NCBI GenBank assembly: GCA_033398695.1
Contig: CM065802.1
Coordinates: 206,913,096-206,977,095 of the forward strand
Origin: Orobanche coerulescens
Taxonomy: Eukaryota > Streptophyta > Magnoliopsida > Lamiales > Orobanchaceae
Direction of reading: 5' to 3'
Length of the DNA stretch: 64,000 bases
The notes below the pieces were generated by a model. That model saw nothing but the letters and a program-made list of their open reading frames with translations. It made no database searches and was not told the DNA's origin. The first letter of the stretch is position 1. Each line of letters begins with the position of its first letter. Shown one piece after another: positions 14,604-55,875 of this stretch. Made by a program: the position numbers and the translations under genes.

Positions 14604-14995
14604 TAGCGCACGCTAATGCTTGTGGCATAGCGCACGCTACGGCATTGTGGTTAGCGCACGCTACCGTATGTGTAGCGCACGCTAACTGGCAGTCCAGAGG
14701 CAGTCCAGGAGCTACTGGACTGGGACTGGGGCTTTGTTAGCGCACGCTAAGGTCTATAGCTAGCGCACGCTATCGACTGCTTAGCGCACGCTCTTTTTCT
14801 TTCTAGCGCACGCTACCCGGTAGGTGCAGTTCTATCCAGAGGCCACTGGACTGGTTTCGTGACCCGTTAGCGCGCGCTACGCTCATGGGTCTAGCGCACG
14901 CTAACAGTGTTATTCGGTAAGTTCTGGGCGTTGACCTCGTTAGCGCGCGCTAATGCTGTCTGGTTAGCGCACGCTAATTACTGTCCAGTATAAAT
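14604..14995 (+). promoter_or_regulatory. T2 U3 promoter: twelve TAGCGYRCGCTA palindromes plus TATA box
   Basis: Copies of TAGCGCACGCTA or TAGCGCGCGCTA begin at 14604, 14628, 14652, 14673, 14738, 14761, 14782 (partial), 14804, 14868, 14892, 14941 and 14965. The first four are 21-24 bp apart. The array ends 13 bp before TATAAAT (14989-14995). The position indicates a promoter-proximal element; binding of a factor is inference. Confidence 0.8.
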
Positions 14996-16617
14996 ACTGG
15001 ACAGCAGGCTTCACTTCGTCATTTCTCATTTTCTTTATCCCTTCCGACGGGAGCGAGCTCCAGAGGCGATTTTGAGCGACCTTCTTCCTCAAGCTTCATC
15101 TCGGAGTGGATTTGTAGATGTTTAACAACATCTAATCATCTACTTTGCTCAAATCAAGGTAATCTCTTCTTAGAACCCTAGTTTCTTGAATTTGGGATTT
15201 TCCCTTGGATTTTTGATTCTTAACCGATCTCATCCGATCGGTTGTGTATTCTTGTTTGTCTTGACCGTAATCTTCAGATGTTGTTAACCGTTCATCGATT
15301 TTTATCGACCGGATAAACGATTCTTGATTTCTTTGAGAACACTTAGATCCTTGTTGTTTTTAGGATCGTTTCGGATTTCGATTAGTGTTATTGATTCGTG
15401 GTGATGTTATTTTCGTAGTATTCGTGGGATTTGCCGAATCCTTGGTCGTTTTTGGAAGCTCGAGAACTATCCGACCATGTTCGTTCGTTGTTCGGTTGCT
15501 CGTGGTATCGAGGCAAGTATCTTGTCCATACGTTTCATGTTTCGTAGGCGTAATTATTGATAAATGATTTTATGTGAAACTCAATGTTTAATGAACGTAA
15601 AAAGGGATCGGTATGTTCTCGATAAATGTTGTCTTTCAACGATAATTCGTATACTTCGTGAATATGTGTTCTCGGAATATGTGTGTTGGTTTTGTATGTT
15701 GAAAGATAATATGATCACTTCGAGTGAGTTTAATAGACCATAATCCTTTGCCGGGGATTACGAATTGTTATTGTGTACTTGTTCGGTAAGAACGTAATGT
15801 GTGTGATATTAGTTGTGACTCCTTTGAAAGGAGGTTGTGATGTTTAAGTGTTGCTTGGCTTGATGTTCTGCTCATTGTTATGTGATCGTTGAAAGTGATG
15901 TGCCTCCGGGTAGGATTGTTGAATCTCCGGGATCCATGCTTGCTAGTATGGGTCGGGCGTGACCGTAGGGTTATCCAATCCGCGTATGTCTTGCGGGGAC
16001 TCCGAGGTTCGGGGCTTGCTAGCCCGATGCCGAGATAACTTGTGGGGTTATCATCGGGTATGTCTTGCGGGGACTCCGAGGTTCGTGGCTTGTTAGCCCG
16101 ATGCCGGGATAACTTATGGTTGTGGTTTGGAATGGTTCTGTGACGGTTGTCACGAGGATATGTGATTTGGTATGGTTTCCTATTGGGTTATTCACTCGGG
16201 TATGTTCTATGGGAGCATCTGAGGTTCGTGGCTTGTTAGCACGGGACGCGAATAATCCTTAGGAACATGTGTTATGTGATATGGGTCGTGGACCCTATGG
16301 CTTATTATTTGGGTCTTAGACCCCGTGTGTTGTGAATTGGATCGTGAATCCACGTTTTATTATTGGAATCGTATTTTGGAAAGATGATTTTGGGCCGTGT
16401 CCCCAACTGTTTTCGAAAGACTTGAGAATTCCTTAATTCTAAATGTTTTCAAACTCCCGAGATCGTAAAATATTTTGTATGGGATACATGGTTCTATTCC
16501 TACCTTTTATAAATCAAACTATTTGATTAAGTGAATTATCTCGGGAAATATATTCAAGATTTTTATATTCTTGGAGTATGTTGCGTATGACTTGTATTTC
16601 TGTTTTATACTTGCACT

Positions 16618-16660
16618 AGCAAAACAGTGGAGTTTTGCTAACCCCCGAGTATTCGTGGGG
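16618..16660 (+). promoter_or_regulatory. Conserved double stem-loop in T2 LTR
   Basis: First stem AGCAAAAC / GTTTTGCT with a 6-nt AGTGGA loop (16618-16639). It is followed at once by a C-run/G-run stem around GAGTATTCG. The same pair is at 10660-10700 and 22565-22607 in the other T2 LTRs, and in T3 LTRs with a compensatory base-pair change. Confidence 0.7.
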
Positions 16661-17055
16661 TGGATGTCTCAGACAAGTGCCCGTGCGGGTTGTTGGGGAG
16701 CGAATCACAGGATCGATACGAAGGATGATGGAAGACGACGATACTAATCACATGAAGACCATTCGTTGAATATTTTGGTAGAGTCTCAGTATTTGGCCCT
16801 CCGTTGTGTAGTTTTCCCATTTTATGGGTATATTGTTGTATTCCAACCCCTGCGTGGGTATGAGTTTTAAGTCGAGTTGTATATGTTTGATGTATGGTAT
16901 TGTGGTAAAAGACCAAATCGGTCTAGCAGCTCATTATGTAGCCATGTCGGCATGTGACGTGAGGTATTGTTTTAGTTTTTAGCCTGGTAGATCCTCACGG
17001 AGAGGGTCTGCGGCGCTGTAATATTCCCAAACAGATTTGGGGGTGTTACAGAATA

Positions 17056-17067
17056 TGGTATCGGAGC
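17056..17067 (+). promoter_or_regulatory. T2 primer-binding site, unit 2
   Basis: TGGTATCGGAGC, 5 bp after the end of LTR b, identical to the site at 11097. Its presence after a middle LTR shows that this is a true tandem array with shared LTRs. Confidence 0.85.
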
Positions 17068-18612
17068 TTAGGTTGAGGAAACCTAGGCTGTCGGGTTGAG
17101 TTGTGTATTGTGAGGTCTTGTCTTGTCAGATTTGGTCTGACTGAGTGGTGTCGCGACGCGTCGTCTGAGTTGTCGGTCGTGATTAGTATCGAGGCGCAAC
17201 CATCATATTCGTGCGATCTGTGGATGTAAGTCTCCCTACTTTGTTGTGTCTCGTGTTATACGAGTTTATGTGATTCTGTGTTATTATGTGGAGTTTAATT
17301 GTGCCTCGTGAATACTTACTCCATACTTGGTTGACTCTCGTATTGTGTTGGAATAAAGAGTAGTACCGGTATGTATGTATGTATGTATGTATGTATGTAT
17401 GTATGTATACATCTTTGTGTGAAATCATTTTTACGGAGCGATGTTTTGGATTGGTTACTCAATAAAAGTTTATCCATGTGGTATTTCAATTTCAAATGTT
17501 TTGGGGAAGTCACGTAAATTCTATTTAAAAACATCCTTCAGGGAAGAAAAATGATTTGATTTTCGTATGATGACCTCGAGAACGAAGATTTTGAGAATTC
17601 AACCTCATATATTTTATTTTCATCTTGCATTGAAAATTTTCAAAATTCGATTTTTAAATGCTTAAACGAGGTCTACCAAAAGTTTACTTGAGACGTGACT
17701 TTCGCCTTCAACTTTTTGGTTAAAAGATATGTAGTGAGGATGTAAATTGTTGGCGTTTGGATTAGTATGTTGTTGATTACTTGTAACCCTCGACTTTTGA
17801 TATTACTTGGTATATGCTCATGGATGTGTGCTGGATTGGAATAGCTAGCGCGCGCTAACATGGTATGGCTAGCGCACGCTAAGTCTCTATTAAATCATAT
17901 ACTAAATGGTCTGATCAGAAGCCCGGAAATTGCATTCTGGCCATCGGTCTAACTTTTGCGATTGTTAGGCTGACCATTTGTGACCGTACTCTATGTGTGT
18001 TGTTCAGGAATAACAATTGTTGTGTGGTTATGTGTAATTTGAACTGTGTTCTTGTCCGCTGCGTGTGTACAGTTCAAAATGATTTTTTTAGTACTTTTAC
18101 CAAATAGTGTGTGTTTTAAAATGACCTTTCGGGTTCGTAAATTTGAGTTATTTCGTTGACCCTTTTTCCTAACTCTTTTGTCGGGTGACTTAACGTATAT
18201 TTTGAAACTATTGAGTTTTCGCGTCTTCGCCGTGTAATTTCAATGGTATTTTATTACGATATCTGGTATTGGAAAATGACTTTTGGTGAGTATTTGGAAA
18301 GTATTACCGTCATCGGCCTTTTTGGCATTTTTGAACGTTTTTGAAAATGTTTTTCAACTTGGTGAGTTCCGGCGCGGAACCCGTACAGAAAATGATTTTG
18401 ATATAGTGAATGACTTTAATTTCATTGCATTTATAATTCACATAACAAAGACATTATTAATGAAGATTGTCGGGATAACACTTTGTATACTGTGCTCTAG
18501 CTTGAATTAAATCGTAATATGTATATGATTTAATGGTATGATTATAGACGGAAATGTGAATATCTTGCTATGTGTTATGATCTTTCGTTACCATAGGTTA
18601 TTATTTGTTAGT
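17068..18612 (+). other. T2 unit-2 leader between primer site and gag
   Basis: 1.54 kb, near-identical to 11109-12669. It contains (TATG)n at 17370-17408 (39 bp) and palindromes at 17846-17857 and 17870-17881. No other gene seen. Confidence 0.8.
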
Positions 18613-19635
18613 ATGCCTAGGGGCAGAGGTCGTGGTCGTAACCGTGGTGTTGATGGCCATGGGGATCAGATGCAGAATCGAGAGAATGTCGTTGAGAATG
18701 ATTTTAGTTTGGGTGTTGCCACTATATTGCAACAAGTAGCGACTCATATGACTCAGTTGACCCAGGTGGTTCAACGTAGCATTGACGCCAGTCAGAACGT
18801 CGGTGTAAATCAATGGCTTCGTGAGGTAGTTCGTATGAATCCCCCTCGATTCGCCGGTGCTGCGGATGCGTTGGGCTGGGATGGTTGGATTTTCCAGTTG
18901 GGAAAGATTTTCGAGGCTGTCGGATGTCCTGAAGAGCAGAAGGTACCTATCGCTCAGTACCTTCTTGACAAAGATGCCGCTAATTGGTGGGAAGCTGTTA
19001 AACCTCGTGATCGTGATGTCACGTGGGCGGAGTTCCAGGCATTTATGGAAGCTGAGTTTTGTCCGAAACCGATTAGAGAGCAGAGGATTCACCAATTTTA
19101 TTCGGCAGAACCGCAAGATGTTTCAGTGTCACAAGCTATCATCGACTATAGCAAACAACTCAGTTATGTGCGAGATCGGGTGAGAACCGAGGAAGAGAGG
19201 ATCTTTCATTTTGACAGACGAATGAAGCCAGAGATTCGTGTGTATATGTCGGGACTCACTTGCACTTCGTTGATGGACTACCAAGATCGAGCCTTGGCCC
19301 GTGAACTAGCTTCGTTATCGTCGGAGCGTGTGCCCGAGTTGAAGAAACAGAGGAAGTCCGATGACCTTGTGGACAGTGCAGGAGTTGGTGTTTCTAGTTC
19401 GCAACGTCGTAGTCTTTCGGCTGTGAAGCTCTGTCGCTCGTTGCGTGGGACTGAGAGTTCCAAGTCTTCTGCTTTGACTCCTGGTAAAGCGAGGAGGTGT
19501 TTTAACTGCAATGTGGCGGGGCATGTCTGTGCACATTGTCCTTCTCCGCCAGTAATGTGTTACAAGTGCGGGCTTGAGGGATACCGAGTTCAGTTTTGCG
19601 AGTTGGTTACCGAGCCTTCCAGGGCACGGACTTGA
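18613..19635 (+). CDS. gag: T2 Gag, intact (340 aa), Tekay-like
   Basis: Structural capsid/nucleocapsid protein expected to package element RNA in cytoplasmic virus-like particles. The start at 18613 is chosen because the N terminus (MPRGRGRGRNRG) is the basic segment seen at this position in related Gag and is shared by unit 1. The frame is also open upstream to an ATG at 18538. A retrotransposon-gag domain spans roughly residues 85-240 (GWDGWIFQLGKIF, AANWWEAV, FMEAEFCP). Near the C terminus are two zinc knuckles: CFNCNVAGHVCAHC (CX2CX4HX4C) and CYKCGLEGYRVQFC, where the ligand His is replaced by Tyr. No protease or pol follows, so movement would need enzymes in trans. An intact Gag in a pol-less element suggests the protein is useful in cis; that is inference. 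Confidence 0.88.
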   Translation: MPRGRGRGRNRGVDGHGDQMQNRENVVENDFSLGVATILQQVATHMTQLTQVVQRSIDASQNVGVNQWLREVVRMNPPRFAGAADALGWDGWIFQLGKIFEAVGCPEEQKVPIAQYLLDKDAANWWEAVKPRDRDVTWAEFQAFMEAEFCPKPIREQRIHQFYSAEPQDVSVSQAIIDYSKQLSYVRDRVRTEEERIFHFDRRMKPEIRVYMSGLTCTSLMDYQDRALARELASLSSERVPELKKQRKSDDLVDSAGVGVSSSQRRSLSAVKLCRSLRGTESSKSSALTPGKARRCFNCNVAGHVCAHCPSPPVMCYKCGLEGYRVQFCELVTEPSRART

Positions 19636-20382: not shown

Positions 20383-20395
20383 AAGAGGGGTAGAA

Positions 20396-23000
20396 TGTAA
20401 TACCCGAGAATTTTGTTTCGGGTTCGTTGAGTTTTCGGGGCTTTATCGGATTGTTATTGCCCTCATCGTTGGAATTTTGTGCCATGTTTGGGTGTGCCTT
20501 GTTGGTACATGTGTTTGGAGACGTTTTGGATCACTATGTGAGTTTTTGGATTTTTGTAGTGTAGCGCACGCTAATGCTTGTGGCATAGCGCACGCTACGG
20601 CATTGTGGTTAGCGCACGCTACCGTATGTGTAGCGCACGCTAGCGGCGATCGAGGCGATCCGAGAGCTACCGGATCGGGCCGGGCTTTGTTAGCGCACGC
20701 TAAGGTCTATAGCTAGCGACGCTATCGACCGCTTAGCGCACGCTCTTTTCTTTCTAGCGCACGCTACCCGGTAGGTGCGATTCTATCCAGAGGCCACCGG
20801 TGGTTTCGTGACCCGTTAGCGCGCGCTACGCTCATGGGTCTAGCGCACGCTAACGGTGTTATTCGGTAAGTTACGGCGTTGACCTCGTTAGCGCGCTAAT
20901 CTTTGTCTGGTTAGCGCACGCTAATTACTATCGATATAAATCTTGGGACAATGAGCTTCACTTCGTCATTTCTCATTTTCTTTATCCCTTCCGACGGGAG
21001 CGAGCTCCAGAGGCGATTTTGAGCGACCTTCTTCCTCAAGCTTCATCTCGGAGTGGATTTGTAGATGTTTAACAACATCTAATCATCTACTTTGCTCAAA
21101 TCAAGGTAATCTCTTCTTAGAACCCTAGTTTCTTGAATTTGGGATTTTCCCTTGGATTTTTGATTCTTAACCGATCTCATCCGATCGGTTGTGTATTCTT
21201 GTTTGTCTTGACCGTAATCTTCAGATGTTGTTAACCGTTCATCGATTTTTATCGACCGGATAAACGATTCTTGATTTCTTTGAGAACACTTAGATCCTTG
21301 TTGTTTTTAGGATCGTTTCGGATTTCGATTAGTGTTATTGATTCGTGGTGATGTTATTTTCGTAGTATTCGTGGGATTTGCCGAATCCTTGGTCGTTTTT
21401 GGAAGCTCGAGAACTATCCGACCATGTTCGTTCGTTGTTCGGTTGCTCGTGGTATCGAGGCAAGTATCTTGTCCATACGTTTCATGTTTCGTAGGCGTAA
21501 TTATTGATAAATGATTTTATGCGAAACTCAATGTTTAATGAACGTAAAAAGGGATCGGTATGTTCTCGATAAATGTTGTCTTTCAACGATAATTCGTATA
21601 CTTCGTGAATATGTGTTCTCGGAATATGTGTGTTGGTTTTGTATGTTGAAAGATAATATGATCACTTCGAGTGAGTTTAATAGACTGTAATCCTTTGTCG
21701 GGGATTACGAATTGTTATTGTGTACTTGTTCGGTAAGAACGTAATGTGTGTGATATTAGTTGTGACTCCTTTGAAAGGAGGTTGTGATGTTTAAGTGTTG
21801 CTTGGCTTGATGTTCTGCTCATTGTTATGTGATCGTTGAAAGTGATGTGCCTCCGGGTAGGATTGTTGAATCTCCGGGATCCATGCTTGCTAGTATGGGT
21901 CGGGCGTGACCGTATGGTTGTCCAATCCGCGTATGTCTTGCGGGGACTCCGAGGTTCGGGGCTTGCTATCCCGATGCCGAGATAACTTGTGGGGTTATCA
22001 GCGGGTATGTCTTGCGGGGACTTTGAGGTTCGTGGCTTGTTAGCCCGATGCCGGGATAACTTATGGTTGTGGTTTGGAATGGTTCTGTGACGGTTGTCAC
22101 GAAGATATGTGATTTGGTATGGTTTCCTATTGGGTTATTCACTCGGGTATGTTCTACGGGAGCATCTGAGGTTCGTGGGTTGTTAGCACGGGACGCGAAT
22201 AATCCTTAGGAACATGTGTTATGTGATATGGGTCGTGGACCCTGTGGCTTATGATTTGGGTCTTAGACCCCGTGTGTTGTGAATTGGATCGTGAATCCAC
22301 GTTTTATTATTGGAATCGTATTTTGGAAAGATGATTTTGGGTCGTGTCCCCAAGTGTTTTCGAAAGACTTGAGAATTCCTTAATTCCAAATGTTTTCAAA
22401 CTCCCGAGATCGTAAAATATTTTGTATGGGATACATGGTTCTATTCCTACCTTTTATAAATCAAACTGTTTGATTAAGTGAATTATCTCGGGAAATATAT
22501 TCAAGATTTTTATATTCTTGGAGTATGTTGCGTATGACTTGTATTTCTGTTTTATACTTGCACTAGCAAAACAGTGGAGTTTTGCTAAGCCCCGAGTATT
22601 CGGGGGGTGGATGTCTGTATTGCGTCCAGGTACTTGCAGGTTGTTGGGGAGTGAATCACAGGATCGATACGAAGGATGATGGAAGACGACGATACTAATC
22701 ACATGAAGACCATTCGTTGAATATTTTGGTAGAGTCTCAGTATTTGGCCCTCCGTTGTGTAGTTTTCCCGTTTTATGGGTATATTGTTGTATTCCAACCC
22801 CTGCGTGGGTATGAGTTTTAAGTCGAGTTGTATATGTTTGATGTATGGTATTGTGGTAAAAGACCAAATCGGTCTAGCAGCTCATTATGTAGCCATGTCG
22901 GCATGTGACGTGAGGTATTGTTTTAGTTTTTAGCCTGGTAGATCCTCACCGAGAGGGTCTGCGGCGCTATAATATTCCCAAGCGGTTTGGGGGTGTTACA
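20396..23000 (+). repeat. T2 LTR copy c (2605 bp, complete)
   Basis: Near-identical to copy b except for a cluster of differences at about 20640-20950. There almost every change replaces or deletes bases of CAG/CTG or CCAG/CTGG words. It ends at 23000 with GGGTGTTACA, and Copia coding sequence (C1) starts at the next base. Confidence 0.88.
20562..20941 (+). promoter_or_regulatory. T2 U3 promoter in LTR c
   Basis: Same palindrome array as LTR b, first copy at 20562 and last at 20912, with TATAAAT at 20935-20941. One copy near 20715 lacks two bases (TAGCGACGCTA) and one near 20888 has lost a CG pair. Confidence 0.75.
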
Positions 23001-25691: not shown

Positions 25692-25735
25692 CTTGAGACA
25701 AGAAAAAAAAAAGAAATGAGTTTTCACAGTATATC

Positions 25736-40999: not shown

Positions 41000-41042
41000 A
41001 GTAAAACAGTGGAGTTTTACTAACCCCCGAGTAATCGGGGGG
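41000..41042 (+). promoter_or_regulatory. Conserved double stem-loop in T3 LTR
   Basis: AGTAAAAC / GTTTTACT stem with the same AGTGGA loop as T2, then CCCCCGA / TCGGGGG. Also at 47392-47430 (T3b) and 50164-50206 (3' LTR). Relative to T2, the third pair of the first stem changes from C-G to T-A while pairing is kept. Confidence 0.7.
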
Positions 41043-41398
41043 TGGATGTCTGTTCTGCGTACAGGTACATGTAGGTTCAGGGGAGCAGTCACAGGATTAG
41101 CACAAGAGGATGACGAGCTGCGATACTAATCAAGAGTCGAGAGTTGGTAGAGTTTGGTTGTATTGTTAGAGTTGATTTCAGTCTTCCACTGTATTGTGTT
41201 TCGACCCCTGTGTGGGTAATGTTGTTTTAGTCAGTTCTGTTGATGGAGTTGTGTGACCTCATCGGTCTGTATTATTATATTGCTTGACCCTGGTCGGGCA
41301 AGCATTTGGTTGTTTATGGATGTTTAGCCTGGTAGATCCTTGTGGAAAGGGTCTACAACGTGTAATATTCCCATACGGTTTTGGGGGTGTTACATTTA

Positions 41399-41410
41399 TG
41401 GTATCGGAGC
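41399..41410 (+). promoter_or_regulatory. T3 primer-binding site
   Basis: TGGTATCGGAGC, 4 bp after the 5' LTR, identical to the T2 site. The leader from here to 43045 (about 1.6 kb) has no recognisable gene. Confidence 0.85.
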
Positions 41411-44166: not shown

Positions 44167-44386
44167 TAGTGTTTTTGGTACTCGTTGCGCGGATTATTTC
44201 TCGTGTAGAGATGTATTTTGTGACGCCTTTACGTTTGGAACTTGTTGAATGATATTTTGTTTTGTGTAAGTTCCCGTTTAGTTGTTGAACCTACGGAGGC
44301 GTGACAGTGGACCGCGGGGTCATAAACATGGTATTTTATTATGTGCCGTTATGTTTTGTTTCGTATCACTGTGATAACATTAGTTT

Positions 44387-44773
44387 AAGTTTTGGGACGA
44401 AACTTATTTTTAGTATGATGGAATGTAATATCCGGTATTATCGTTTTCTGTTATCTTGAATTGTTTGTGTTTTGACGTTGGACATTTCCTTGTTGATGAG
44501 AATCGGAGTGATTTCTATCGTGATACTCTATTTGTTTCTATCGCATAGCCGTTTTAGTCGGGTGCGACTTGTTGTCATGTGCGTTTCTTTTATTAAATGT
44601 GTGCATGTGATGTGTCGTGAATTGCTCGTTATTGTTTTGAATCATAGTCGGTGGCGTTGTGTTGATCATCGTGGGGCGTGTTTTCACGCTGTATATTCTT
44701 TTGCGTTGCTTGTAACATTTCGCCAATGGGCAAAAGTAACGCGTTTCTTGTGTATCTTGTTGAGTTTTCCTGT
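44387..44773 (+). other. Internal PPT/LTR-start look-alike in T3
   Basis: GGGACGAAACTT (about 44393) and a purine-rich stretch lead into TGTAATATCCGG (44433), the usual signature of a 3' LTR start. No LTR body or end follows. About 340 bp later the sequence meets solo LTR T3b and then the genuine 3' end of T3. Probably a relic of recombination with another Tekay-like element. Confidence 0.6.
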
Positions 44774-45469
44774 TGTAATATCCGCAAATTTTCGATTTTC
44801 GGTAAATTTCTTTTTTCGGCCGAAGTCCGTTTTGACGACTCGCTTTTGACCGTTTCGTCATTCGGAGAATATTTAATTCTGCACTTTTTGTCATCCGAGT
44901 TCGTTTGGTCCGCTTTGTTGAGTTCCGTGCTTTTAACGACTTTTCCGCTTGAGTTCGGTTCTTGCGAATCTCGTTCGAAACTGTCGTTTGGGGTTTTTCG
45001 TAAGTTCATTTAACGTTGTTATACGTGTTGTGAGCTTCGGTTTGATTATTCGTTGTCGTATGGTGATTTCGGGCATTTGGACCATTTTCGTAATTTCCCA
45101 AAGTTTGGGGTAATTACCTTCCGTTGTCCAATTTCGAGCCTTCGGGTGGTCGGAATCGTGTGTTCTACTAGCTCTTAGATTCGTCTTTGTGAGTACTTCG
45201 TAACCGTATCTTCGGTTCGTATTCAGGTTCGGGTTTCGGTGTCGTTTTGTTGAATTCAGGATTACTAAACGACTTTTCTAAGTATGAGTTCGACTTTGTT
45301 AGATCACCATTAATTTTTGGTAACTCCAAAAATTCTGAATCTTTGCAATAATATAGAGCATCGAGTTAGCTTTCCAATGGTTCAAACGGTGAGTCAATCG
45401 GAGTCCGGACGAGAGAGTTATGGTCGTTTTAGCTCACCCGCTCGTTATTGCCGATCACCGCGGCCGAAC

Positions 45470-45770
45470 TCGGCCGTGTCGTCCGACACGGCCCGTGCCG
45501 TACTCGTCCGGATAAGCCAGAAGTCTCTGCCTCAGGACCCGACCGTGTCGTCTGGCACGGCCGAGCCGAACTCTTCCGGATAAGCCGGAAGAGGCCCGAC
45601 CGTGTTCCAGGACACGGTCGAGTCAATGCCGAGCGCCACGGACAGGTCACTATCGGTAGGCCCCTTCGCGCCGACACCGTGTCATGCAGGACACGGTCGA
45701 GTCCCTGCCGGCCAACTGCGCGCCACGACCGTGTCAGGCGGACACGGTCGAGTCTGTCAGCCTATTTAAG
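45470..45770 (+). promoter_or_regulatory. T3b U3 promoter with ACCGTGTC...GACACGGT hairpins
   Basis: At least five inverted-repeat pairs: CCGTGTC-GTCC-GACACGG near 45475, then pairs near 45541, 45600, 45678 and 45728. They finish just before a TATTTAAG box at 45763-45770. Confidence 0.68.
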
Positions 45771-46712
45771 GCCCAGCAGTCGTTTTTTCGCCATTTTTTC
45801 TCCTTCTTCTACTTCGCTTCCGCGTCTGGGATTGTTTCTATCATGGAGAGATGTTGTTTTTCAATAAATCCATGAAGTCTTGGAGTTCATATCATCAATC
45901 ATACATCCTATAACATCCTTTGATCGAGCGAATCAGGTCAGATTTTCTAGAAATCTAATTTTGGGGATTTTGGGTATTTTGTTCGATTTCGTCCGTTTAA
46001 TCCGATTTAACTTAGGATTGTGATGGATTGATGATTATTTAGATGTATTGTATCATTTCCCTTGTTATCCCATGGTTGGATCGTATCGATTCGTTGTTTT
46101 GGTCGAGTTCTTGACCGACGCCTTGAAGGTGTCCTAGAAATGTCATAGAGGGGTTTTCGGGCGTTCTACGATTATTCTTCCTCGTATGATCGATGATTTT
46201 TTGAATTTATGTTGCTAGGGTCGAATTATTGTGAAGAACTCGAGTCGAAACCCTTCCGTTCATTGTCTTCTTCGGGGTCCGAGCTTCCCGGTCGAACCGT
46301 GTTTTTCGGAGCGTTTGGTAGCGGTTATTAAGGCAAGTATCTTATTATACGACTTGTATCTTGTGAATAGTAATTACGTATGATATGTATAACGATTTTG
46401 CTTGCCTCCGTAAATATGTTCCGTTTGAGTTGGTTGTGTTTTCCGAAATTTGAAGGCTTTGTGATAATAGTGATATATTGGTATACGTGTTCGGCGTTGT
46501 GCCATTTGTGCAGGATTGCGATGTACATATGAGATGGTTGTACACGTGGTTGTGCAATGTATTGTGTACCGAATGTGTGTTATGTTGGTTAAGAGTCGTT
46601 GTGATGATCATGATATTTGCGTTGTTTTGGTTTACATACTTGATTGTACATTTCATTGTAATGTGGAATGGCTTGACATTTAATGATTATGAATTGTGTC
46701 GTGTCGATGTGT

Positions 46713-47078
46713 GGGTGTTCGGTAGGGTCCGACGAGGCCTCGGAGTTCGGTACATGATGTGTACGAACAAAGTGTGTGATCCGGTAGGGTCCGACGAGGC
46801 CTGCGGAGTCCAGACATGACGTGTACGGACAGGATGTGTGATCCGTGGTAGGTCCGACGAGGCCTCCGGAGTTCGGTACATGATGTGTACGAACGATGTT
46901 GTGGCCGGGTAGGGTCCGTCGAGGCCTCGGAGTTCGGTACATGATGTGTACGAACAGGTGTGTGTGGGTAAGGTCCGTTGAGGCCTCCGAGTTCGGCACA
47001 TGATGTGTACGAACGGTGTGTGGTCCGGGTAAGGTCCGTCGAGGTCTCGGAGTTCGGTACATGATGTGTACGAACAAT
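46713..47078 (+). repeat. 60-bp repeats in T3b, six units
   Basis: Same unit as in the T3 LTRs. The second unit is the most diverged. Several units lack bases at CTGG/CCAGG words that the T3 LTRs keep. Confidence 0.85.
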
Positions 47079-47862
47079 GATCGTGTAGTGATTGTTCGGG
47101 TAACATTTTATATATGGATCTCGGACTCAAAATGATATATATTATTTTGTATGCTTTGAAACGAGAATCGGGCTAAGGCCCTAATGTTTTCGAAAAGGTT
47201 TTGTAAATTGGGACTCGAGGTCCAAAAGAATTTCGTTTTAAAAATCCCGAGATGATGTGTTCCTTTTCAAATATCTCTTACTTGAGTTCGAAATTCTAAA
47301 ACTTCTCGGGAACATTTTGATAATGGATTTCCGTATTAAATTCGTTGTTGCTATTTGCTTGTTACATTTCGTATGGTTTGATACTTGCACTAGTAAAACA
47401 GTGGAGTTTTACTAACCCCGAGTATTCGGGGGTGGATGTCTGCTGCGTCTGTACATGCAGTTCGGGGAGCACACAGGGATTGGCACAAGGGGATGACGAG
47501 TGCGATACTAATCAAGAGTTGAGAGTTGGTAGAGTTTAGTTGTATTGTTAGAGTTGATTCGGTCTTCATTTGTATTGTATTTCGACCCCTGTGTGGGTAA
47601 TGTTGTTAGTCGATCCTGTTGATAGAGTTGTGTGACCTCACCTGGCCGTGTGTTTATGTGTAAGTGACCTTGACGGTCTGTATTATTATATTGTTTGACC
47701 CTGGACGGGCAAGCATTTGGTTGTTTATGGACGTTTAGCCTGGTAGATCCTTGCGGAAAGGGTTTACGGCGTGTAATATTCCCATACGGTTTTGGGGGTG
47801 TTACACCTGTCGGGTTATTGCTTCTCCCTACTTATTTTAAGTTTCGGGACGAAACTTCTTTT

Positions 47863-47875
47863 AAGGAGGGTAGTA
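47863..47875 (+). promoter_or_regulatory. T3 polypurine tract
   Basis: AAGGAGGGTAGTA directly before the 3' LTR, preceded by GGGACGAAACTTC. It is separated from the gag region by solo LTR T3b. Confidence 0.82.
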
Positions 47876-50590
47876 TGTAATATCCGCAATTTCGATTTCC
47901 GGTAATCTTCTTTTTTCGGAAGAGGTCCGTTTCGACGTCTCTCTTGGGACCGTTTCGTCATTCTGAGAATGATTAATTCTGCACTTTTTGTCATCCGAGT
48001 TCGTTTCGGTATTGTTTTGTTGAGTTCCGTGTTTCTTAACGACTTTTCCGCACTCGAGTTCGATTCTTATGAATCTCGTCTGAAATTACTGTTTCGTGTT
48101 TTCCGTAAGTCTTTTTAACTTTTTTAGACGTGTTGTGAACTTATGTTTGGTTATTCGATCACGTATCGTGATTTTCGGAGGTTTTGGGCCATTTTCGTAA
48201 TTTCCCAAAGTTTGGGGTAATTACCTTCCGTTGTCGAATTTCGAGCCTTCGGGTGGTCAGAATCGTGTGTTCTCTAAGTGCTCGAATTCGTCTTTGCGAG
48301 TACTTTGTAACCGAATCTCCGCTTTATATTCAGGTTTGGGTTTCGGGGTCGTTCGGATCGTCGTTGTGGTTTTGTCGTAATTTTCGGTTTGTGTCGGAAT
48401 CATTTTGCGTCTGGAGGTTGCTGGCCGGACCTGTGCGGAACGGCGCTGAAAACGGTGCTACCGAGCGCCGTGTCCTGCGCCGGGTCGGCCAGGACCAACA
48501 AGTCTGCCGAGACACGGCCGAGAACCCGCGCAAGATTTGCGCCGGGTGATGCACCGTGTCGGATACGGCCGAGACATACGCGCGGGCACCTTGCGCCGGG
48601 TGTTGCGCCGTGTCGGTCAGGTCGCGCGCTGACCCGCAACCCGGCGGTAGACACGGCGCTGGTGTGGGCCGTTTGCTGCGCCGTGTTCGGCAGGAGTATA
48701 TATATGGCAGGACAGTCGGGATTACACCCATTTTTCCCATTTATTCACTTCCTTTCCGCGGCTGGGACTTGGGGGGCACGAGGAGATGTTGTTCCACTAT
48801 AAATCCATGAAGTTCCTGAGTCCATAACATCGATTAATCCTTCCATAACTTGCTCCGATCGACCGAATCAGGGTAAGTTTTCTTAAAATCTAGTTTTGGG
48901 GATTTTGTTCGATTTGTCTATTTAATCCATTTTAACTCAGAATAGTGATGGATTGATGATTCTTAAGCTATATTATATCAAATTCCTTGTTATTCCACGG
49001 TTGGATTGCCATGGATTTGTCGTTTTATTGAGTATCTTATCGACGTCTTGAAGGTGTTCGATAAAATGTCACAAAGAGAATCCGAGCGTTCTACGATTAT
49101 TCTTCCTCGTTCGTTCGTTAATTTATTGATGGTATGATGTTAGGGTCAGATTCCTTGTGAAGAACTCGAGTCAGAACCCTTCCGTTCATTGTTTTCTTCG
49201 TGGTACAAGCTTCCTGGTCGAACCGTGTTCTTCGGGGTATTCGGTAACGGTTATTATGGCAAGTATTTTACTATACGAATTGTGTCTTGTGAATAGGGAC
49301 GTTATGTTATGGTTATGATGAATTGATTTATCTTAGCGAATATGCTTCGCATGAATTTATTATTATGAACGATTGACGGTAACGATAATACCTTCACTTA
49401 ATTAACATCGTGGAATTGTGTTGGACGTGCAAATCATCTAAGTTTGTGCCGGGCGTGATTGGTCATTGTGGAGTTGTTGTGATGATTATGATATTTGTGT
49501 TGTTTTAGTTTACATACTTGATTATACCTTTCGGTGTAATGTGGTATGACTTGACATTTGATGATTATGAATTGTGTCGTGTCGACGTGTGTGTGTGTTC
49601 CAGGTAGGGTCTGACGAGGCCTCTGGAGTTCGGTACATGATGTGTACGAACAAGGTGTGTGATCCAGGTAGGGTCTGACGAGGCCTCTGGAGTTCGGTAC
49701 ATGATGTGTACGAACGATGTTGTGGCCGGGTAAGGTCCGTTGAGGCCTCCGGAGTTCGGTACATGATGTGTACGAACAGTATGTGTGATCTGGGTAAAGG
49801 TCCGTCGAGGTCTCCGGAGTTTGGTACATGATGTGTACGAACAACGATCGTATAACAGTGATTGTTTGGGTAACATTTTAAATACGGGTCTCGGACTCAT
49901 AATGATATCTTATCTAGTTTGTTTTGAAACGAGAATCGGGCCAAGGCCCTAATGTTTACGAAAAGGTTTTGTAAATTGGGACTCGAGGTCCAAAAAAACT
50001 TTCCACTTTAAAAATCCTCGAGATGATATGTTCCTTGTCAAATATCTCCTGCTTGAGTTCGAAATTCAAAAACTTCTCGGGAACATTTTTGATAATTGAT
50101 TTCCGTATTAAATTCGTAGTTGCTATTTACTTGTTGCATTTCGTATCGTATTATACTTGCACTAGTAAAACAGTGGAGTTTTACTAACCCCCGCGTAATC
50201 GGGGGGTGGATGTCTGTTCTGCGTCCAGGTACATGCAGGTTCAGGGGAGCAGTCACAGGATTGGCATAAGAGGATGACGAGCTGCGATACTAATCAAGAG
50301 TCGAGAGTTGGTAGAGTTTGGTTGTATTGTTAGAGTTGATTTCAGTCTTCCGCTGTATTGTGTTTCGACCCCTGTGTGGGTAATGTTGTTTTAGTCAGTT
50401 CTGTTGATGGAGTTGTGTGACCTCATCGGTCTGTGTATACATGTGCAAGTGACCTTAACGGTCTGTATTATTATATCGCTTGACCCTGGCCGGGCAAGCA
50501 TTTGGTTGTTTATGGATGTTTAGCCTGGTAGATCCTTGTGGAAAGGGTCTACGGCGTGTAATATTCCCATACGGTTTTGGGGGTGTTACA
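47876..50590 (+). repeat. T3 3' LTR (2715 bp)
   Basis: Pairs with 38712-41394: same four 60-bp repeats, same TATATATAT box (48697-48705), same ends. It is followed by CGCTA and then C2 LTR sequence. Confidence 0.9.
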
Positions 50591-51043
50591 CGCTATCGCT
50601 TGTAGCGTATGGTAATGTCTATTTGCGTGCGTTAACTACGTGTAACTTCAGTCCAGTGGCTACTGTCCATGACAGTTAGCGTGCGCTAACATTTCCTTGT
50701 AGCGTGCGCTAATCTTGCATCATTGCATGCATCATATATCCGTTTATACTTTTTGACTTTGCTTCAGAATCTCCCAACGGATTGATTGACTTGAATTCAA
50801 AATGCTATTTAGCATGCGCTAAATATCATCAGTAGCGTGCGCTATGTCTTACTTCACTGCATACGTCATTCTTAGTTTGAATGTCTTCACAATGTAAGAT
50901 AGCCTTCGATAGCGTGCGTTAGTGTTCATGTGTAGCATGCGCTATCTTCACCAGATGACTTAACTTCAGGTAACTTTGATCTCGTCTGATTTGCAGTCCG
51001 GGCCCGTTAGCATGCGCTAACTTATATGTCTAGCGTGGCGCTA
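50591..51043 (-). promoter_or_regulatory. C2 U3 palindrome array, distal part
   Basis: TAGCGTGCGCTA and variants at about 50677, 50699, 50812, 50833, 50910, 50932, 51008 and 51031, continuing the array at 38680-38711 on the other side of T3. Several copies read TAGCATGCGCTA. In the uninterrupted LTR all lie upstream of the TATA box on the minus strand. Confidence 0.75.
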
Positions 51044-51177
51044 GCTTTGTATTTTGTCCAGCTTTTTGCGACTTCGTCTGCTTCGTTGCTTTGCTTCGCC
51101 TTTTTGTTATTTTGATTTGTTTAGCAACATAATCATCAAAACTTTATTAACGAATATGTGGAATAAATATTCGAACA
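50596..51177 (-). repeat. C2 3' LTR, right part
   Basis: From the T3 insertion site to TTCGAACA (51177), which is TGTTCGAA on the minus strand. The polypurine tract follows at once (minus-strand AAAAAGGGGTAGAT). Confidence 0.8.
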
Positions 51178-51659
51178 ATCTACCCCTTTTTGATGATTAC
51201 AAAACGACCCTTGAATTGGATAAAACCTGCAAAATAAAAGTATATATATTTGTACGTATCAAAGTTTTCGGCTTTGATCGTTTCGTTAGTTTCACCCATA
51301 TTTTCTTTTCTTGTCATTTTCGACTTCTTCGTTTCTCATTTTTAACTCCTTCGTTTGTCCCCCTTTTTGTATGCTTTCTTTTTCTTCTTCTCGACTTCTT
51401 TGATTTTTATTATTTTCTCCTCCTTGTACTTTTTATTTTTCTCATCATTCTTTCATGACACTTTTTATCTGATTCTACTCCTTCTCCCCCTTTTCGTGTT
51501 CAGCAAAAAGTGTAAAAAATATACCAATTGAATATCAATATGCATGATATCAATTGATGAATATAACTATATGCATGAATAGGGTATAACTCCCCCTGAA
51601 AATATTATCTCCCTTTAAAAAATACCCCCCCTTTGTAAAATATCAAAAATTGTTAAAAA
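51178..51659 (-). other. C2 3' non-coding interior and polypurine tract
   Basis: Polypurine tract at 51178-51190 (reverse complement), then about 470 bp rich in T and C with no gene. In a complete SIRE-like element protease, integrase and RT would separate gag from this region. Confidence 0.7.
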
Positions 51660-53194
51660 TTAATTCTTGGGGATCCAACCTATAGTTGGTATTTGTTTAG
51701 ATACATAGACGATATTCGGAATAGGTGTTCCTTTGGTAATCCAAATTTTTTTAGTTGCTATCGTCCGTCGTGGGCTTTTGCAATTCGAAATGTAGTGCCC
51801 AATTTTCAAATATTTTTCGCAATGGGGTATCTTCAAGTTCACGGATTCGGTTTTAAAATTTTGTTTGAATCCCAACCCCTATTTTTTCAAAGTAAATTTA
51901 TGAACCGAGAGCATTTGTTCAAATTTCTCGTTTCCACACGAGAATTTCTTCGTTAAATTTTTGAGCTCGGTTTGACTTTTCAAAAGATCATCCTTTAGGA
52001 TATTTCGTTTTCAATGCATTTAGAATGATCGATCTCAATAAATTTTCCTTTTTCAAGAATTTTGGAATTTTTCTTTTCCAATGATTTATATTTAGATTTA
52101 AGGGATTTAATCTCAGATAAAGCATTTTGATAGTCCGTATGCAATAGTTCAAATGCTTCAAAAAGTTCATCGTAATAATTACTTACTTGGCTTTCGACGT
52201 TGCTATCGTCGAATGAACTCCGGGCCATAAATGCAAGGTTATTTTTATCAATGAAATTATCATCAATATCTTCGTCACTCCATGTTGCAACGAGTACCTT
52301 CTTCGGATTTGCTGCTTGGAAATTCTTTGCGAAATGGCCTGGTTTTCCACATACTCGACAATTATTGTCGAATTTCTTATATTCGCCCAATTTGATGTCT
52401 TTCTTTCTCCGATTTAATAGGTGTTGGAACTTATTAATATTTTTGGCATAATATGCCGATTCTTCGTTGCTTTCATCCACCGGGATTTCTTCTCTCTTGG
52501 ACATCTTAGCCTTCATGGCTATCGTCCTTTTCTTCAGGTTTGGTTTCGCATTCCGAGATTTAAGTACTATCTCGTAGTTGATAAGTGAACCAACGAGAGT
52601 ACTAAAATCAAGATTATTTAGATCTTTAGATTCCATTATTGCCGTCACCGTATCGTCCCATTCTCGAGGTACTGATCGGAGAATTTTCTTTACTTTATTA
52701 CTACTCGAAAGTGGTTTTCCGAAACCTGCTAATCCATTTGTGATGACTGAGAATCGGTCGAGCATTATAGTGATGGATTCGTCTCTTTCATTTGGAATAA
52801 CTCGTAATCGTGAAGGAGCATGTTTATCTTCATCTCCTTGACTTGGGACGTCCTTCGTGTGTTACCTCAAGAATTTTCCAAATTTCTTTGGCACTATCAC
52901 ACGATGATATCCGGTTGTGTTCTTCTGGATTTAATACACAATATAATAATTGCGTGACTTTGCAATTATAATGGTCATTTTTTCAATCCGCATCATCATA
53001 CTCTTCAAAGGTTTTGAGAGTTCCGTTTGAGTTTGTCGGAATTTTGGGACCAAGGCATATAACCTTCTATAATTCCATATCGTAAGCTCGGATGAAAATA
53101 GACATCTTCTTCTTCCAAGACATTAAATTCGATCCATCAAAAATGGTGGTCGATTGAGAGCAAGGCCTTCGACTAGAGCATATTGAAACGCCAT
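51660..53194 (-). pseudogene. gag: C2 gag (SIRE-like), broken
   Basis: The start is placed at 53194 (MAFQYALVEGLALNRPP). After a frameshift near 53150 the N-terminal domain reads SWKKKMSIFIRAYDMELWK. A TGA where Trp is expected lies near 52980 and another frameshift near 52850. The longest open part (52765-51995, 256 aa) has the UBN2-type core (MLDRFSVITNGLAGFGKPLS, LRSVPREWDDTV) and a zinc knuckle CRVCGKPGHFAKNF, whose last Cys has become Phe. An acidic and then coiled-coil-like stretch follows (SEIKSLKSKYKSLEKKNS). The final part (51875-51660) carries a degraded second knuckle (HCEKYLKIGHYISNC), a layout known in SIRE-type Gag. No pol follows. Confidence 0.75.
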
Positions 53195-53237
53195 TTGGAT
53201 CTACTTCTTGGATGTTAAGCCGCTTATTGGAGGTACC

Positions 53238-53249
53238 GCTCCGGTACCA
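53238..53249 (-). promoter_or_regulatory. C2 primer-binding site
   Basis: Minus strand TGGTACCGGAGC, two changes from TGGTATCAGAGC, 2 bp from the LTR end at 53252. Confidence 0.72.
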
Positions 53250-53251
53250 AT

Positions 53252-53508
53252 TGTTGGAGCAATATCGGTATTTGCGCCGTTGTACGAAATTTATAACGAA
53301 CGATTTACATATTATATATTTACATGAAGGTTCTTTTTTGTGTTCCCGTATAATTATACGGGTGTTATACTAGTATATATATATATATATATATTCCATT
53401 GATTAAAGAAACCACACTATTTGTGGACGACTCCAAAAGGATTAATACAACGTAGTTCATTACCTTAAAGTATATATATCCAAATAATTTAATAATTGAA
53501 GCATACAC
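53252..53508 (-). repeat. C2 5' LTR, terminal fragment
   Basis: Begins TGTTGGAGCAATATCGG next to the primer site, like the 3' LTR. After about 30 bp it no longer matches the 3' LTR at 38096. It contains a (TA)n tract near 53371-53394 and ends where T5 begins. Confidence 0.55.
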
Positions 53509-55875
53509 AGTAATACTCCCAAGATATTCAGGGCATGTTAGAGCGCCGCGAACCCCTACGTGGGACCCACCAGGCTAAATGAACAATACCGCTCGTCTAA
53601 CCATCTCGGTTAGCGAGAAACACACAACACCACAATAATAACTAAATGAAATCACCCGGTACAACCGGTAAACAGGACATCACCCAAATTCACAATTACA
53701 ATTAAACATACAAAACATACCCCAAATCAAAAATGCCTAAGTACTCGCGAGTACTATCTATAAGTTCACAAGTTTGGAAAACAAACACATTTAAATGGAA
53801 AACAGAAGTAAAGGGACTCCATTGCACACATCAACATCCCCGGCCAACATCCTCGTACTGCTCCAGTGCGCTCAACCGGCTGAACGCCACCTGAAATTCA
53901 TAACAAGAATTTCCCCAAAACGGGTCCCCAAAGGGGTTAGCAATTACGCTAGTACAAGTAATCAAGGCAGACCATTCGCTTACACATTTTATAGTACATG
54001 CATCAAGTCATTTTAAAATCCAAAACCAGACATGTCTTTTCCGGAAAACGAACAGTCAATAATAAATTTGCCTAGGACCGGGGCAAAACCACTGGTCCCA
54101 TTCGAGGCCCTTAAGGACCCTCCCGAACTGGCCATAATCATAAAATAAATCACGCACAGGCATCGCCTAGGACCGGGGCTAAACCACTGATCCCATTCGA
54201 GGCCTCTAAGGACCCTCTGTAACTGGCTAGCGAACAAGCTCGTGAATCCCGAGTGAAGTCACGGATTCCCGTGAGGCCCCGTCGGACCCTCCCGGAGTGA
54301 GCAAAGTGCACACATATTATACATCACAATTTCATGTTAAGAATAAAGGTTTCCAAGAATACTTGCCTTGAGTAATTAACGACGAAATGGACGGAATGGA
54401 GAAACAATCACCATCGCTAGGAACCGACAAACTCGAACCTAACGATTCGAAGAATACAATCACAACCATTTGTAAACGATTACGGAAATGGAATATACCC
54501 AGAAACCCACCTACGATTCATATAAATTCGTACAAAAACAACAACGAGGGCGGATCGCAACCGAACCCTCTCGATTTCATAAATACCACGAAACTTGCCA
54601 TGAACTCGTAGAGAAAACAAGAATACCACCAAGATTAATCATATACATCATGGATTTATCAGCAATACGGAACGAATCGGACAAAAACTCTAAATTTCCC
54701 AAAAATAGGGTTCTAGGAGATTATCTTGGATTAAAGACGAAGAACACGAGTAGTTGTTGTTAATCTACACCAAGAACTCAAGAAAGATGGTAGTTGAGGT
54801 GATTAGAAGAAGAAATCGCCTCCAAATCGCCTCTGGATCGCTCAGGCCGTGGGGAGGAAGAGAAGTGAGTAAAGTGGACGGATCTGGGTCAACTCTCGGG
54901 TATATATAACCAAATGGTTTAGCGTGCGCTAACGGCTCACGGTTAGCGCGCGCTAACCAGCCAAATTGGTCCAGAACTTGCGGTTCTGACCCGTTAGCGT
55001 GTGCTACCGGAAAATAGTGTGCGATAACAGTTCCCCGATAGCGCGTGCTATCGAGCTATAGCGTGCGCTGCCTGTTCGCCATCCCGAGTCCAGAAATATT
55101 CTACCCAGTCTGGACTACCGAATTAGTACTCGCTGTCACACACCTAGCCTGCGTTATGCCTCGGCCATATCATGCACTAATATACAGATTTAGCGTGCGC
55201 TAAGCTGCTCGTCCAAAGAACAGAAACAGTCTACTGCCACTGCTGTACTCGAGTCATTAGCGCGCGCTACCAAACGAATATAGCATGCGCTACACAACGA
55301 CATTAGCGTGTGCTACATAACAAAATTAGCACGCGCTAACGAGTGCAGATAGTAGTATAGACAACACCCAGAGATGGAAAACAGCGAATTCTACCTCGGA
55401 TGAAAACAACGTGCATCTAACACCAAACAACGGACTGAAAGAAAACACACGCACGATGAGTTCGAGTCGGAACTAAAGCAAAAGGTTCGACTACCCAAAA
55501 GGTTCGGAAAACGACAACAATAGTAATTATCCCATAACTTTGGGAAATTACAAAACAGCCCAAAACATCCGAAATACACGATACACGATCGAAACACCAA
55601 ACGAAAGCTCACAACATGCACAGTGACATAAGACGGATCTGCGGCAACCCCAAAACGGCAGTTCAGAACAACGATTATGAAAATCGAACCAAATAGTGAC
55701 GGGAATGACATTAAATGCGGGATTGAGTAAAACAGGTCCGAAACACGCTCGGATAACAAAAAGTCCAGTATTAAATATTCTCGAAATATCAATATAGTTA
55801 TAATCGAGTCACTAAAAATGAAAAATACATCACAACAAAAAATACCAAAAAAAAGAAAAAAATGCGGATATTACA
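53509..55875 (-). repeat. T5 3' LTR (about 2.37 kb)
   Basis: The inner end is exact (TGTAATATCCGCATTTTT on the minus strand, ending at 55875). The outer end is inferred by alignment with the T1 and T3 ends and is decayed (AGTAATACTCCC for TGTAACACCCCC), so it is uncertain by a few bases. It holds three GAGGCC/ACCACTG repeat units at about 54069-54290. Confidence 0.75.
54900..55338 (-). promoter_or_regulatory. T5 U3 promoter with TAGCGYRCGCTA array
   Basis: Minus-strand TATA box TATATATA (54900-54909). Upstream on that strand are about eleven palindrome copies, among them 54920-54931, 54944-54955, about 55189, 55257, 55280 and 55302, and 55327-55338. Same motif and same position relative to TATA as in T2 and C2. 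Confidence 0.75.

What the first reader, a model, noticed from the sequence alone, without database searches (positions are those of the whole stretch)
14604..55338. One palindrome, TAGCGYRCGCTA, fills the U3 promoters of two Ty3 families and one Copia family
Eleven to twelve copies lie just upstream of the TATA box in T2 (14604-14976, TATA 14989), T5 (54920-55338 on the minus strand, TATA 54900-54909) and C2, a Copia element (38680-38711 plus 50677-51043, TATA 38640-38648). The surrounding LTR sequences are otherwise different. Ty3 and Copia LTRs share no ancestry that would explain it, so the array was either acquired by exchange between elements or evolved convergently because one host factor, or the methylation machinery, reads this motif. 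A second small cluster sits in the T2 leader (11903-11938). I know of no named plant promoter element with this sequence.
Basis: partly seen in the sequence, partly recalled or inferred. Interest (0 to 1): 0.87.

Follow-up and report, generated by a model that had tools for sequence, protein, structure and literature searches.

The report
Paired palindrome arrays powering retrotransposon promoters
In this plant genome a 12-letter near-palindrome occurs about 1.3 million times, and in the stretches sampled it sits mostly in paired, regularly spaced arrays, usually just before the TATA box of jumping genes from at least two unrelated families, where it likely serves as the docking site for a host protein that switches them on.

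Summary
The arrays are real and far from chance. TAGCGYRCGCTA occurs 33 times in the window (0 in shuffles) and 1,309,842 times in the 3.65-Gb genome (reversed control 108). They precede the TATA box in Ty3 families T2 and T5 and Copia family C2. A further, Ty3-like family, T1, was missed; it has a sister palindrome, TTACGTACGTAA (170,680 genome-wide).

In 27 sampled arrays sites come as pairs and pairs of pairs 23-24 bp apart (92 of 113 groups even; shuffles at most 66). The centre is mostly CA on the mRNA strand, the last site often lies 11-12 bp before TATA, and CTGGAC recurs between groups. In eight related array pairs palindromes differ at 3.2% of bases, spacers at 15.3%. C2 flanks match no Ty3 flank; T2, T4 and T5 LTRs are partly homologous, T5 looking like a mosaic.

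Best reading: an LTR enhancer module, likely bound by one host protein acting in pairs. Sirevirus palindromic boxes (PMC2829016) are a close precedent; new here are the motif, Ty3-Copia sharing, pair grammar and scale. Protein and function are untested; exchange and convergence remain open.

The parts
14604..14976 (+). T2 (Ty3, middle LTR) palindrome array: 12 sites in groups 4,4,2,2
14989..14996 (+). T2 TATA box, 12 bp after the last palindrome
20562..20923 (+).
11903..11938 (+). Palindrome pair in the T2 leader, downstream of the PBS
17846..17881 (+). Second copy of the T2 leader pair
54920..55338 (-). T5 (Ty3) array: 12 sites with up to 2 mismatches, 13 counting one with 3; groups 4,3,4,2
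54901..54908 (-). T5 TATA box, 11 bp after the last palindrome
50603..51043 (-). C2 (Copia) U3 array, upstream part
38680..38711 (-). C2 array, last two sites, cut off from the rest by the T4 insertion
38640..38647 (-). C2 TATA box, 32 bp after the last palindrome
51130..51199 (-). C2 polypurine tract AGGGGTAG (51180-51187), AT/TG junction and flanking 12-bp inverted repeat (51188-51199 and 51130-51141): Sirevirus-like
51998..52861 (-). C2 Copia gag fragment (PF14223)
   Evidence: best hit in the protein search from Orobanche gracilis
8097..8664 (-). T1 array of the sister palindrome TTACGTACGTAA, 14 sites, groups 4,2,2,4,2; TATA begins at 8076, 20 bp on
3393..3960 (-). T1 array in the other LTR
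18529..19632 (+). T2 Ty3-type gag (PF03732); no pol domain found in the four T2 pieces scanned
57463..58164 (-). T5 Ty3 RNase H piece (PF17917); integrase pieces at 57061-57318 and 56030-56332
38712..50590 (+). T4 (Ty3-like by LTR, PBS and DNA similarity to T2) inserted inside one palindrome of C2, 5-bp target duplication CGCTA; its own U3 carries a different CG-rich repeat

Best explanation
The palindromes form paired, 23-24-bp-spaced arrays upstream of the TATA box in Ty3 and Copia LTRs, and they are likely enhancer sites through which one host DNA-binding protein, predicted to bind as a dimer of dimers, drives element transcription. Shown: site pairs and pairs of pairs, a preferred 11-12 bp step from the last site to TATA in the commonest group, a mostly CA centre on the mRNA strand, a second element CTGGAC between groups, and lower divergence of the palindromes than of the spacers among related arrays. 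Inferred: each 12-mer binds a dimer, adjacent dimers co-operate about two helical turns apart, and the last one contacts the TATA complex. Also inferred: the module spreads when LTR parts are recombined between elements (T5 looks like such a mosaic) and is kept because the same host factor is available to all of them; for C2, convergence is equally possible.
For: Genome counts: TAGCGYRCGCTA 1,309,842 against reversed control 108; TTACGTACGTAA 170,680 against 255; TAGCGCACGCTA followed after 11-12 bp by TATAWA 43,279 (21,624+21,655) against 0. In the 200-kb grid TAGCGNNCGCTA is the commonest 12-bp palindrome: 97 against 0.0 expected, 12 of 20 stretches. Spacing: 23 bp (113) and 24 bp (50) of 204 near gaps in 26 arrays. 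Group sizes in 27 arrays: 92 of 113 even, shuffled mean 47, maximum 66 in 5000; in the window 17 of 18 even with hand-curated sites, P 1e-5. Promoter direction: of 26 arrays oriented by their centre, 20 have TATAWA within 120 bp downstream and 2 upstream; 14 of 26 at 11-12 bp. CTGGAC is 16.6-fold enriched in spacers, in 19 of 26 arrays. Conservation in 8 chosen array pairs read both ways: palindromes differ at 53 of 1671 bases, spacers at 866 of 5663; CpG bases 17 of 590 against 102 of 866. T5 upstream part like T4 (z 31.8), not like T2 (z 1.2); downstream part closer to T2 (z 25.4) than to T4 (z 9.6).
Against: No binding protein is identified and no expression data were available. The sampled arrays are not independent: with the window families their flanks fall into 7 upstream and 10 downstream clusters, most of them in one Ty3-linked group, and 11 of the 27 arrays were fetched because they hold sites. 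Some arrays have a weak centre majority (2 to 1 in L030_457, L030_6405 and L039_657). Conservation is overstated by calling sites exact in one copy; by my reckoning that alone would give about half the spacer rate (0.077), against 0.032 seen. In C2 TATA is 32 bp away, in its relative L016 41 bp, in T1 20 bp, so the 11-12 bp register belongs to the T2/T5-like group. At TATA-proximal sites the centre is CA 10, TG 3, CG 2, TA 1, so orientation is a bias, not a rule. Under a strict rule (at most 1 mismatch) only 15 of 21 window groups are even. 1.3 million sites would swamp most transcription factors unless many are silenced.
Confidence: 0.66

Rival explanations
1. The pairs are arms of RNA hairpins in the LTR transcript; the hairpins are diced into small RNAs or act in the RNA life cycle, as proposed for maize Sirevirus palindromes.
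For: Array RNA folds better than dinucleotide shuffles: sense z -4.1 (T1), -5.6 (T2), -3.5 (T5); antisense -10.5, -8.2, -8.2; four control stretches lie between 0.9 and -2.5. Sirevirus palindrome regions are small-RNA hotspots (PMC5311732 and PMC10760457, passages read).
Against: Any repeated palindrome folds well, so the z-scores follow from the repeats. Partners are no more complementary than non-partners of the same array: sense 9.95 against 9.92 of 12, antisense 11.51 against 11.46 (204 and 1813 pairs). The usual CA centre makes two mismatches in the sense stem. The C2 part folds weakly (z -0.5 and -1.9). A TATA register is not expected.
Confidence: 0.15
2. The motif is the target of a silencing or anti-silencing protein (a host methylation reader, or an element-encoded factor of the kind I recall as VANC) rather than of an activator.
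For: Each site carries two to three CpGs. T2 middle and right LTR arrays differ mainly at CWG trinucleotides (33 of 66 CWG bases changed or deleted, 16 of 222 other spacer bases).
Against: CpG is high across the whole window (o/e 1.09), so the arrays do not stand out by CpG alone. No extra element gene was noticed in the 30 open pieces scanned. TATA register and promoter-pointing orientation fit an activator better.
Confidence: 0.11
3. Simple common descent: one homologous U3 block carried by all families.
For: T2 and T5 are homologous downstream of TATA (z 25.4); most sampled arrays belong to one linked Ty3 group.
Against: With palindromes masked the arrays of the four window families do not align except a short T2-C2 match (z 4.4). 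C2 flanks match no Ty3 flank (z at most 2.4). It cannot explain the Copia family.
Confidence: 0.05

Closest known systems
Sirevirus palindromic repeated-motif (RM) boxes, Copia (PMC2829016: abstract, sections 9, 10, 19 and passages read; the maize study Bousios 2016 is not held and is known to me only as cited in PMC5311732 and PMC10760457)
   Same: Short palindromes, at least 8 copies per element, clustered in the upper half of the LTR upstream of TATA, extra copies in the internal region of some elements, no known binding factor.
   Different: Their core is CGG-CCG in 12 of 13 elements (GCG-CGC here); the paper calls them Sirevirus-specific among the Copia elements it studied; [quoted passage not shown] Here Ty3 families carry the motif too.
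Palindrome shared between transposon classes in maize (PMC10760457, passages read)
   Same: CACCGGACNNNGTCCGGTG was the commonest motif of structured regions in both Copia and Helitron elements, so a palindrome shared by unrelated elements has a precedent; the paper also cites arrays of sometimes palindromic cis-repeats in other elements.
   Different: Copia and Helitron rather than Copia and Ty3; reported as secondary structure, not as an array grammar set to TATA.
Heat-responsive elements of ONSEN and other COPIA LTRs (PMC5059998, abstract and passages read)
   Same: Clusters of sites for one host factor gained or kept in LTRs of several retrotransposon families.
   Different: nGAAn clusters, HSFA2 in ONSEN; here about a dozen 12-bp palindromes per LTR and an unknown factor.
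Nested-insertion preference for palindromes (PMC6911290, abstract and passages read)
   Same: T4 sits inside one palindrome of C2 (target duplication CGCTA).
   Different: That paper finds only a weak palindrome preference and says LTRs are not commonly targeted; this is a single case.

Membership tests
Sirevirus RM boxes | Palindromic repeat, at least 8 copies per element | tested here: met
   T1 14, T2 12, T5 12-13, C2 11-12 sites per LTR allowing mismatches
Sirevirus RM boxes | Cluster upstream of TATA in the LTR | tested here: met
   Gaps from last palindrome to TATA 20, 12, 11 and 32 bp in T1, T2, T5, C2
Sirevirus RM boxes | CGG-CCG core | tested here: not met
   TAGCG-NN-CGCTA and TTACG-NN-CGTAA
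Sirevirus RM boxes | Restricted to Sireviruses | tested here: not met
   Present in Ty3 T2 (gag PF03732) and T5 (PF17917, PF17921, PF24626)
Sirevirus RM boxes | RM cluster defines a CpG island | tested here: inconclusive
   Array CpG o/e 1.2-1.65, but many other 300-bp windows also exceed 1.2 and the whole window is at 1.09; no island predictor was run
Sirevirus (element C2) | PPT AGGGGGAG 10 bp before the 3' LTR, AT/TG junction, extra PPT copies in the linker | tested here: inconclusive
   Terminal AGGGGTAG (one change) at that place with AT/TG; two exact AGGGGGAG in the linker
Sirevirus (element C2) | Inverted repeat whose left arm borders the PPT | tested here: met
   12-bp perfect repeat, left arm 51188-51199, right arm 36 bp inside the LTR
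Sirevirus (element C2) | PBS TATCAGAGC | tested here: not met
   C2 has TACCGGAGC within TGGTACCGGAGC at 53238-53249
Sirevirus (element C2) | C-rich integrase signal near the LTR end | not tested
   No call made for it
Sirevirus (element C2) | Position in a pol tree | not testable with these tools
   No pol seen in C2; about 0.8 kb lies between its gag piece and its PPT
Copia (element C2) | Copia-type gag | tested here: met
   PF14223, E 4.3e-12
Ty3 (element T5) | Ty3-type RNase H and integrase | tested here: met
   PF17917 and PF17919, PF17921 and PF24626; that these are Ty3 marks is general knowledge
Ty3 (element T2) | Ty3-type gag | tested here: met
   PF03732 above its cut-off; Ty3_capsid PF19259 below its cut-off
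Ty3 (element T1) | Ty3-type coding domain | not testable with these tools
   About 370 bp internal region; filed by LTR end, PBS and PPT flank (by eye) only
Heat-responsive element | nGAAn cluster | not tested
   The palindrome holds no GAA; no dedicated scan was run

The most novel reading that the evidence does not exclude
A large share of this genome's LTR retrotransposons, Ty3 and Copia alike, run on one host regulator: its paired palindromic sites, set in register with TATA, have been traded between elements as a promoter cassette and multiplied to over a million copies, making the mobile DNA one regulon that also soaks up its own activator.
Probability: 0.35. Interest if true: 0.86.

Novelty: new variant of a known kind. 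Interest (0 to 1): 0.74.

Why it matters
If a single host protein reads these sites, a large share of the genome's LTR retrotransposons would be under one switch, and the protein could be fished out directly with the paired motif. It would turn the question of why unrelated retrotransposons expand together into a test on one factor, and would suggest promoter modules crossing the Ty3-Copia divide. The pair grammar gives a precise probe design.

Tried and rejected
Hairpin-arm selection: rejected as main cause because partners are no more complementary than non-partners. One homologous U3 block: rejected for C2. CpG islands as the point of the arrays: CpG is high over much of the window. Relatives in viral and prokaryote collections: one locus in IMG/VR for each pair pattern and two in GTDB contigs, each a single place; L001, the only one read, is an isolated inverted repeat in GC-rich DNA. 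Rfam and tRNA scans of the window: 0 hits. Literature search for the motif letters: 49 papers, 25 listings seen, by title and start of abstract none about plant promoters. Helical phasing of the far gaps: R 0.40, n 82, best period near 11 bp, 0 of 500 jitter runs reached it, but the arrays are related, so I give it little weight. Identity of the protein: only binding motifs recalled from memory were considered (NAC, SBP, BZR, E2F and others) and dropped, because none seemed to fit both TAGCGYRCGCTA and TTACGTACGTAA; no motif library was searched.

Rows chosen or dropped: one array without majority centre (L018_7889) is left out of the 26. The window group test uses one LTR each of T1, T2 and T5 and the C2 array; T1b, T2b and the leader pairs are not in it. 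Its C2 list of 12 includes a 13-letter variant at 51030 added by eye, and its T5 list of 13 a site at 55168 with 3 mismatches; the recount by rule, with only the upstream part of C2, is. The C2 junction distance was 18 and should be 19 (target duplication 50591-50595); the grouping is unchanged. The 8 pairs were picked by me from the most similar pairs, leaving out two-LTR pairs of one stretch; two arrays (L042, L044) are used twice. One search fetched 11 of the 14 site clusters listed; the loci L005-L012 were not analysed.


Full report
What was checked. The 12-mer TAGCGYRCGCTA has 33 exact matches in the window and none in 100 shuffles. Allowing up to two mismatches T2 has 12 sites (11 exact), T5 12 (4 exact) and C2 11 (5 exact). 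TATA follows at 12, 11 and 32 bp. The joint form TWRCGYRCGYWA has 56 exact matches in the window, 52 in U3 arrays, 4 in the T2 leaders, none elsewhere.

The hosts of the arrays. T2 is a Ty3-type element in which only gag was found (PF03732; four pieces scanned); three LTR copies stand in tandem, the left one cut short by T1. T5 has Ty3 RNase H and integrase pieces. C2 has Copia gag (PF14223), two exact AGGGGGAG polypurine tracts in its linker, a terminal AGGGGTAG-AT/TG junction and a 12-bp inverted repeat bordering it; these resemble the Sirevirus marks described in PMC2829016, although its PBS differs and no pol was seen. The protein hits that carry an organism name and score best are from Orobanche gracilis and O. 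minor, so the plant is likely of the broomrape family; this is an inference.

Genome scale. The genome search answered: the window lies in a 3,646,015,169-base assembly with 1,309,842 copies of TAGCGYRCGCTA (reversed control 108). TTACGTACGTAA has 170,680 (control 255). In 20 grid stretches of 10 kb TAGCGNNCGCTA is the commonest 12-bp palindrome, 97 against 0.0 expected, in 12 of 20 stretches; TTACGNNCGTAA is next after the TA repeats (16, in 7 stretches). In 24 grid stretches 97 of 104 exact sites lie in clusters and 73 of 104 have an exact neighbour at 18-26 bp; the reversed control has 0.

Grammar. Near neighbours lie 23 bp (113) or 24 bp (50) apart among 204 near gaps in 26 arrays. Groups of sites hold 2 (46), 4 (45), 1 (13), 3 (5), 5 (3) or 6 (1) members in 27 genomic arrays (16 from the grid, 11 fetched around listed sites): 92 of 113 even, against a mean of 47 and a maximum of 66 when gap order is shuffled 5000 times. 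The window gives 17 of 18 with hand-curated sites (P 1e-5) and 16 of 19, 15 of 21 and 14 of 18 by mechanical rules allowing 2, 1 and 3 mismatches. In T2, T5 and C2 the centre on the mRNA strand is CA 30, CG 7, TA 1, TG 0 of 38. Among the first 100 genomic places 77 of 81 CA/TG centres agree with the majority of their array (labelling by majority favours this). Orienting 26 arrays by their centre puts TATAWA within 120 bp downstream in 20 and upstream in 2; with laxer site calling 19 of 26 have one downstream, 14 of them at 11-12 bp. The CA-centred site occurs 11-12 bp before TATAWA at 43,279 places, control 0. 11-12 bp is also the usual spacer length inside a pair, so TATA often takes the place of the next site. 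The matching searches with a TG centre and with other distances did not complete, and in the local sample sites so placed are CA 10, TG 3, CG 2, TA 1.

Second element. With palindromes masked, CTGGAC is the top 6-mer of the four window families among 849 tested: 12 copies, 0.42 expected from the rest of the window; it is in all four, which happened in 0 of 2000 Markov resamplings. In genomic arrays it is 16.6-fold enriched and present in 19 of 26. An 18-base exact match between C2 and the array L027 (E 3.8e-4) and matches of 16-22 bases to four others centre on this element, in both orientations. It resembles the half-site of the maize OPIE-2/PREM-2 box CACCGGACTGTCCGGTG listed in PMC2829016; that is a lead, not a test.

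Homology and exchange. C2 flanks show no significant match to T1, T2, T4 or T5 flanks. T5 matches T4 upstream of the array (z 31.8) and not T2 there (z 1.2); downstream of TATA it is closer to T2 (z 25.4) than to T4 (z 9.6), and T2 and T4 also match (z 7.8). Masked arrays do not align between the four families except a short T2-C2 match (z 4.4). T5 thus looks like a mosaic whose T4-like part ends about 150 bp before its array; unequal divergence is not excluded. Another C2-like copy with two arrays 3.3 kb apart was met by chance in the grid (L016) with the same grammar. So the module probably moves within Ty3 by recombination of LTR parts; how it reached C2 is open.

Constraint. In eight chosen pairs of related arrays, read both ways, exact palindromes of one copy differ in the other at 53 of 1671 bases, spacers at 866 of 5663; for CpG bases 17 of 590 against 102 of 866. 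Calling sites exact in one copy would by itself about halve the rate; the observed drop is nearly fivefold. This is what selection on binding sites would leave, in spite of their CpG content.

Mechanism. Near-symmetric 12-mers in pairs about two helical turns apart, pairs of pairs, a preferred step to TATA and a direction that tends to point to the promoter fit co-operative binding by a dimeric activator. Steps from binding onward are inferred. The hairpin reading is weaker: arms in a pair are no more complementary than any two sites of the array, though antisense array RNA folds strongly (z -8 to -10 in T1, T2 and T5, -1.9 in the C2 part; control stretches 0.9 to -2.5).

Known and new. Palindromic repeat boxes upstream of TATA are known from Sireviruses, with an unknown factor (PMC2829016), and are small-RNA hotspots in maize (PMC5311732, PMC10760457, passages); PMC10760457 also reports one palindrome as the top motif of both Copia and Helitron structured regions, so sharing between unrelated elements is not without precedent. 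The searches, seen as listings except for the papers named here, showed me no report of such boxes in Ty3 elements, of this motif in a plant promoter, or of the pair grammar; most subscription papers are not in that library. I file it as a new variant of a known kind.

Noticed in passing
38707-38712 and 50590-50595: A Ty3-like element (T4) is inserted exactly inside one palindrome of C2, with the 5-bp target duplication CGCTA being part of that palindrome.
   Followed up: partly
9031/9032: T1 ends exactly at the TATA box of the left T2 LTR, just downstream of where its array would lie. Other nested junctions of the window were not examined.
   Followed up: no
14604-15036 versus 20562-20990: T2 middle and right LTRs are identical over the 166 bp before the array and 97.9% alike after it, but the array and TATA region differ mainly at CWG trinucleotides: 22 CWG in one, 2 in the other. 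Escape from CHG methylation, recombination or a base-calling artefact could each do this.
   Followed up: partly
51178-53250: C2 internal region is very poor in CWG (o/e 0.29) while CpG is not depleted (1.23).
   Followed up: no
38712-39540, 44774-45790: T4 LTRs have their own CG-rich repeated words in U3 (GACACGGC, CCCGGCGC); a related LTR at 44774 has a changed version (ACACGGTC), suggesting fast turnover of U3 arrays.
   Followed up: no
L013, L022, L025, L034: Further palindromes with CG, ACACGNNCGTGT (13 in 3 of 20 stretches) and TCGTGNNCACGA (8 in 2), are enriched in the genome grid.
   Followed up: no
1-64000: CpG is not depleted (o/e 1.09) in a window rich in retrotransposons, which I would not expect of heavily methylated plant repeats.
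   Followed up: no
33344-34081: GC-rich tandem repeat region inside the T3 element duplication with long open frames on both strands.
   Followed up: no
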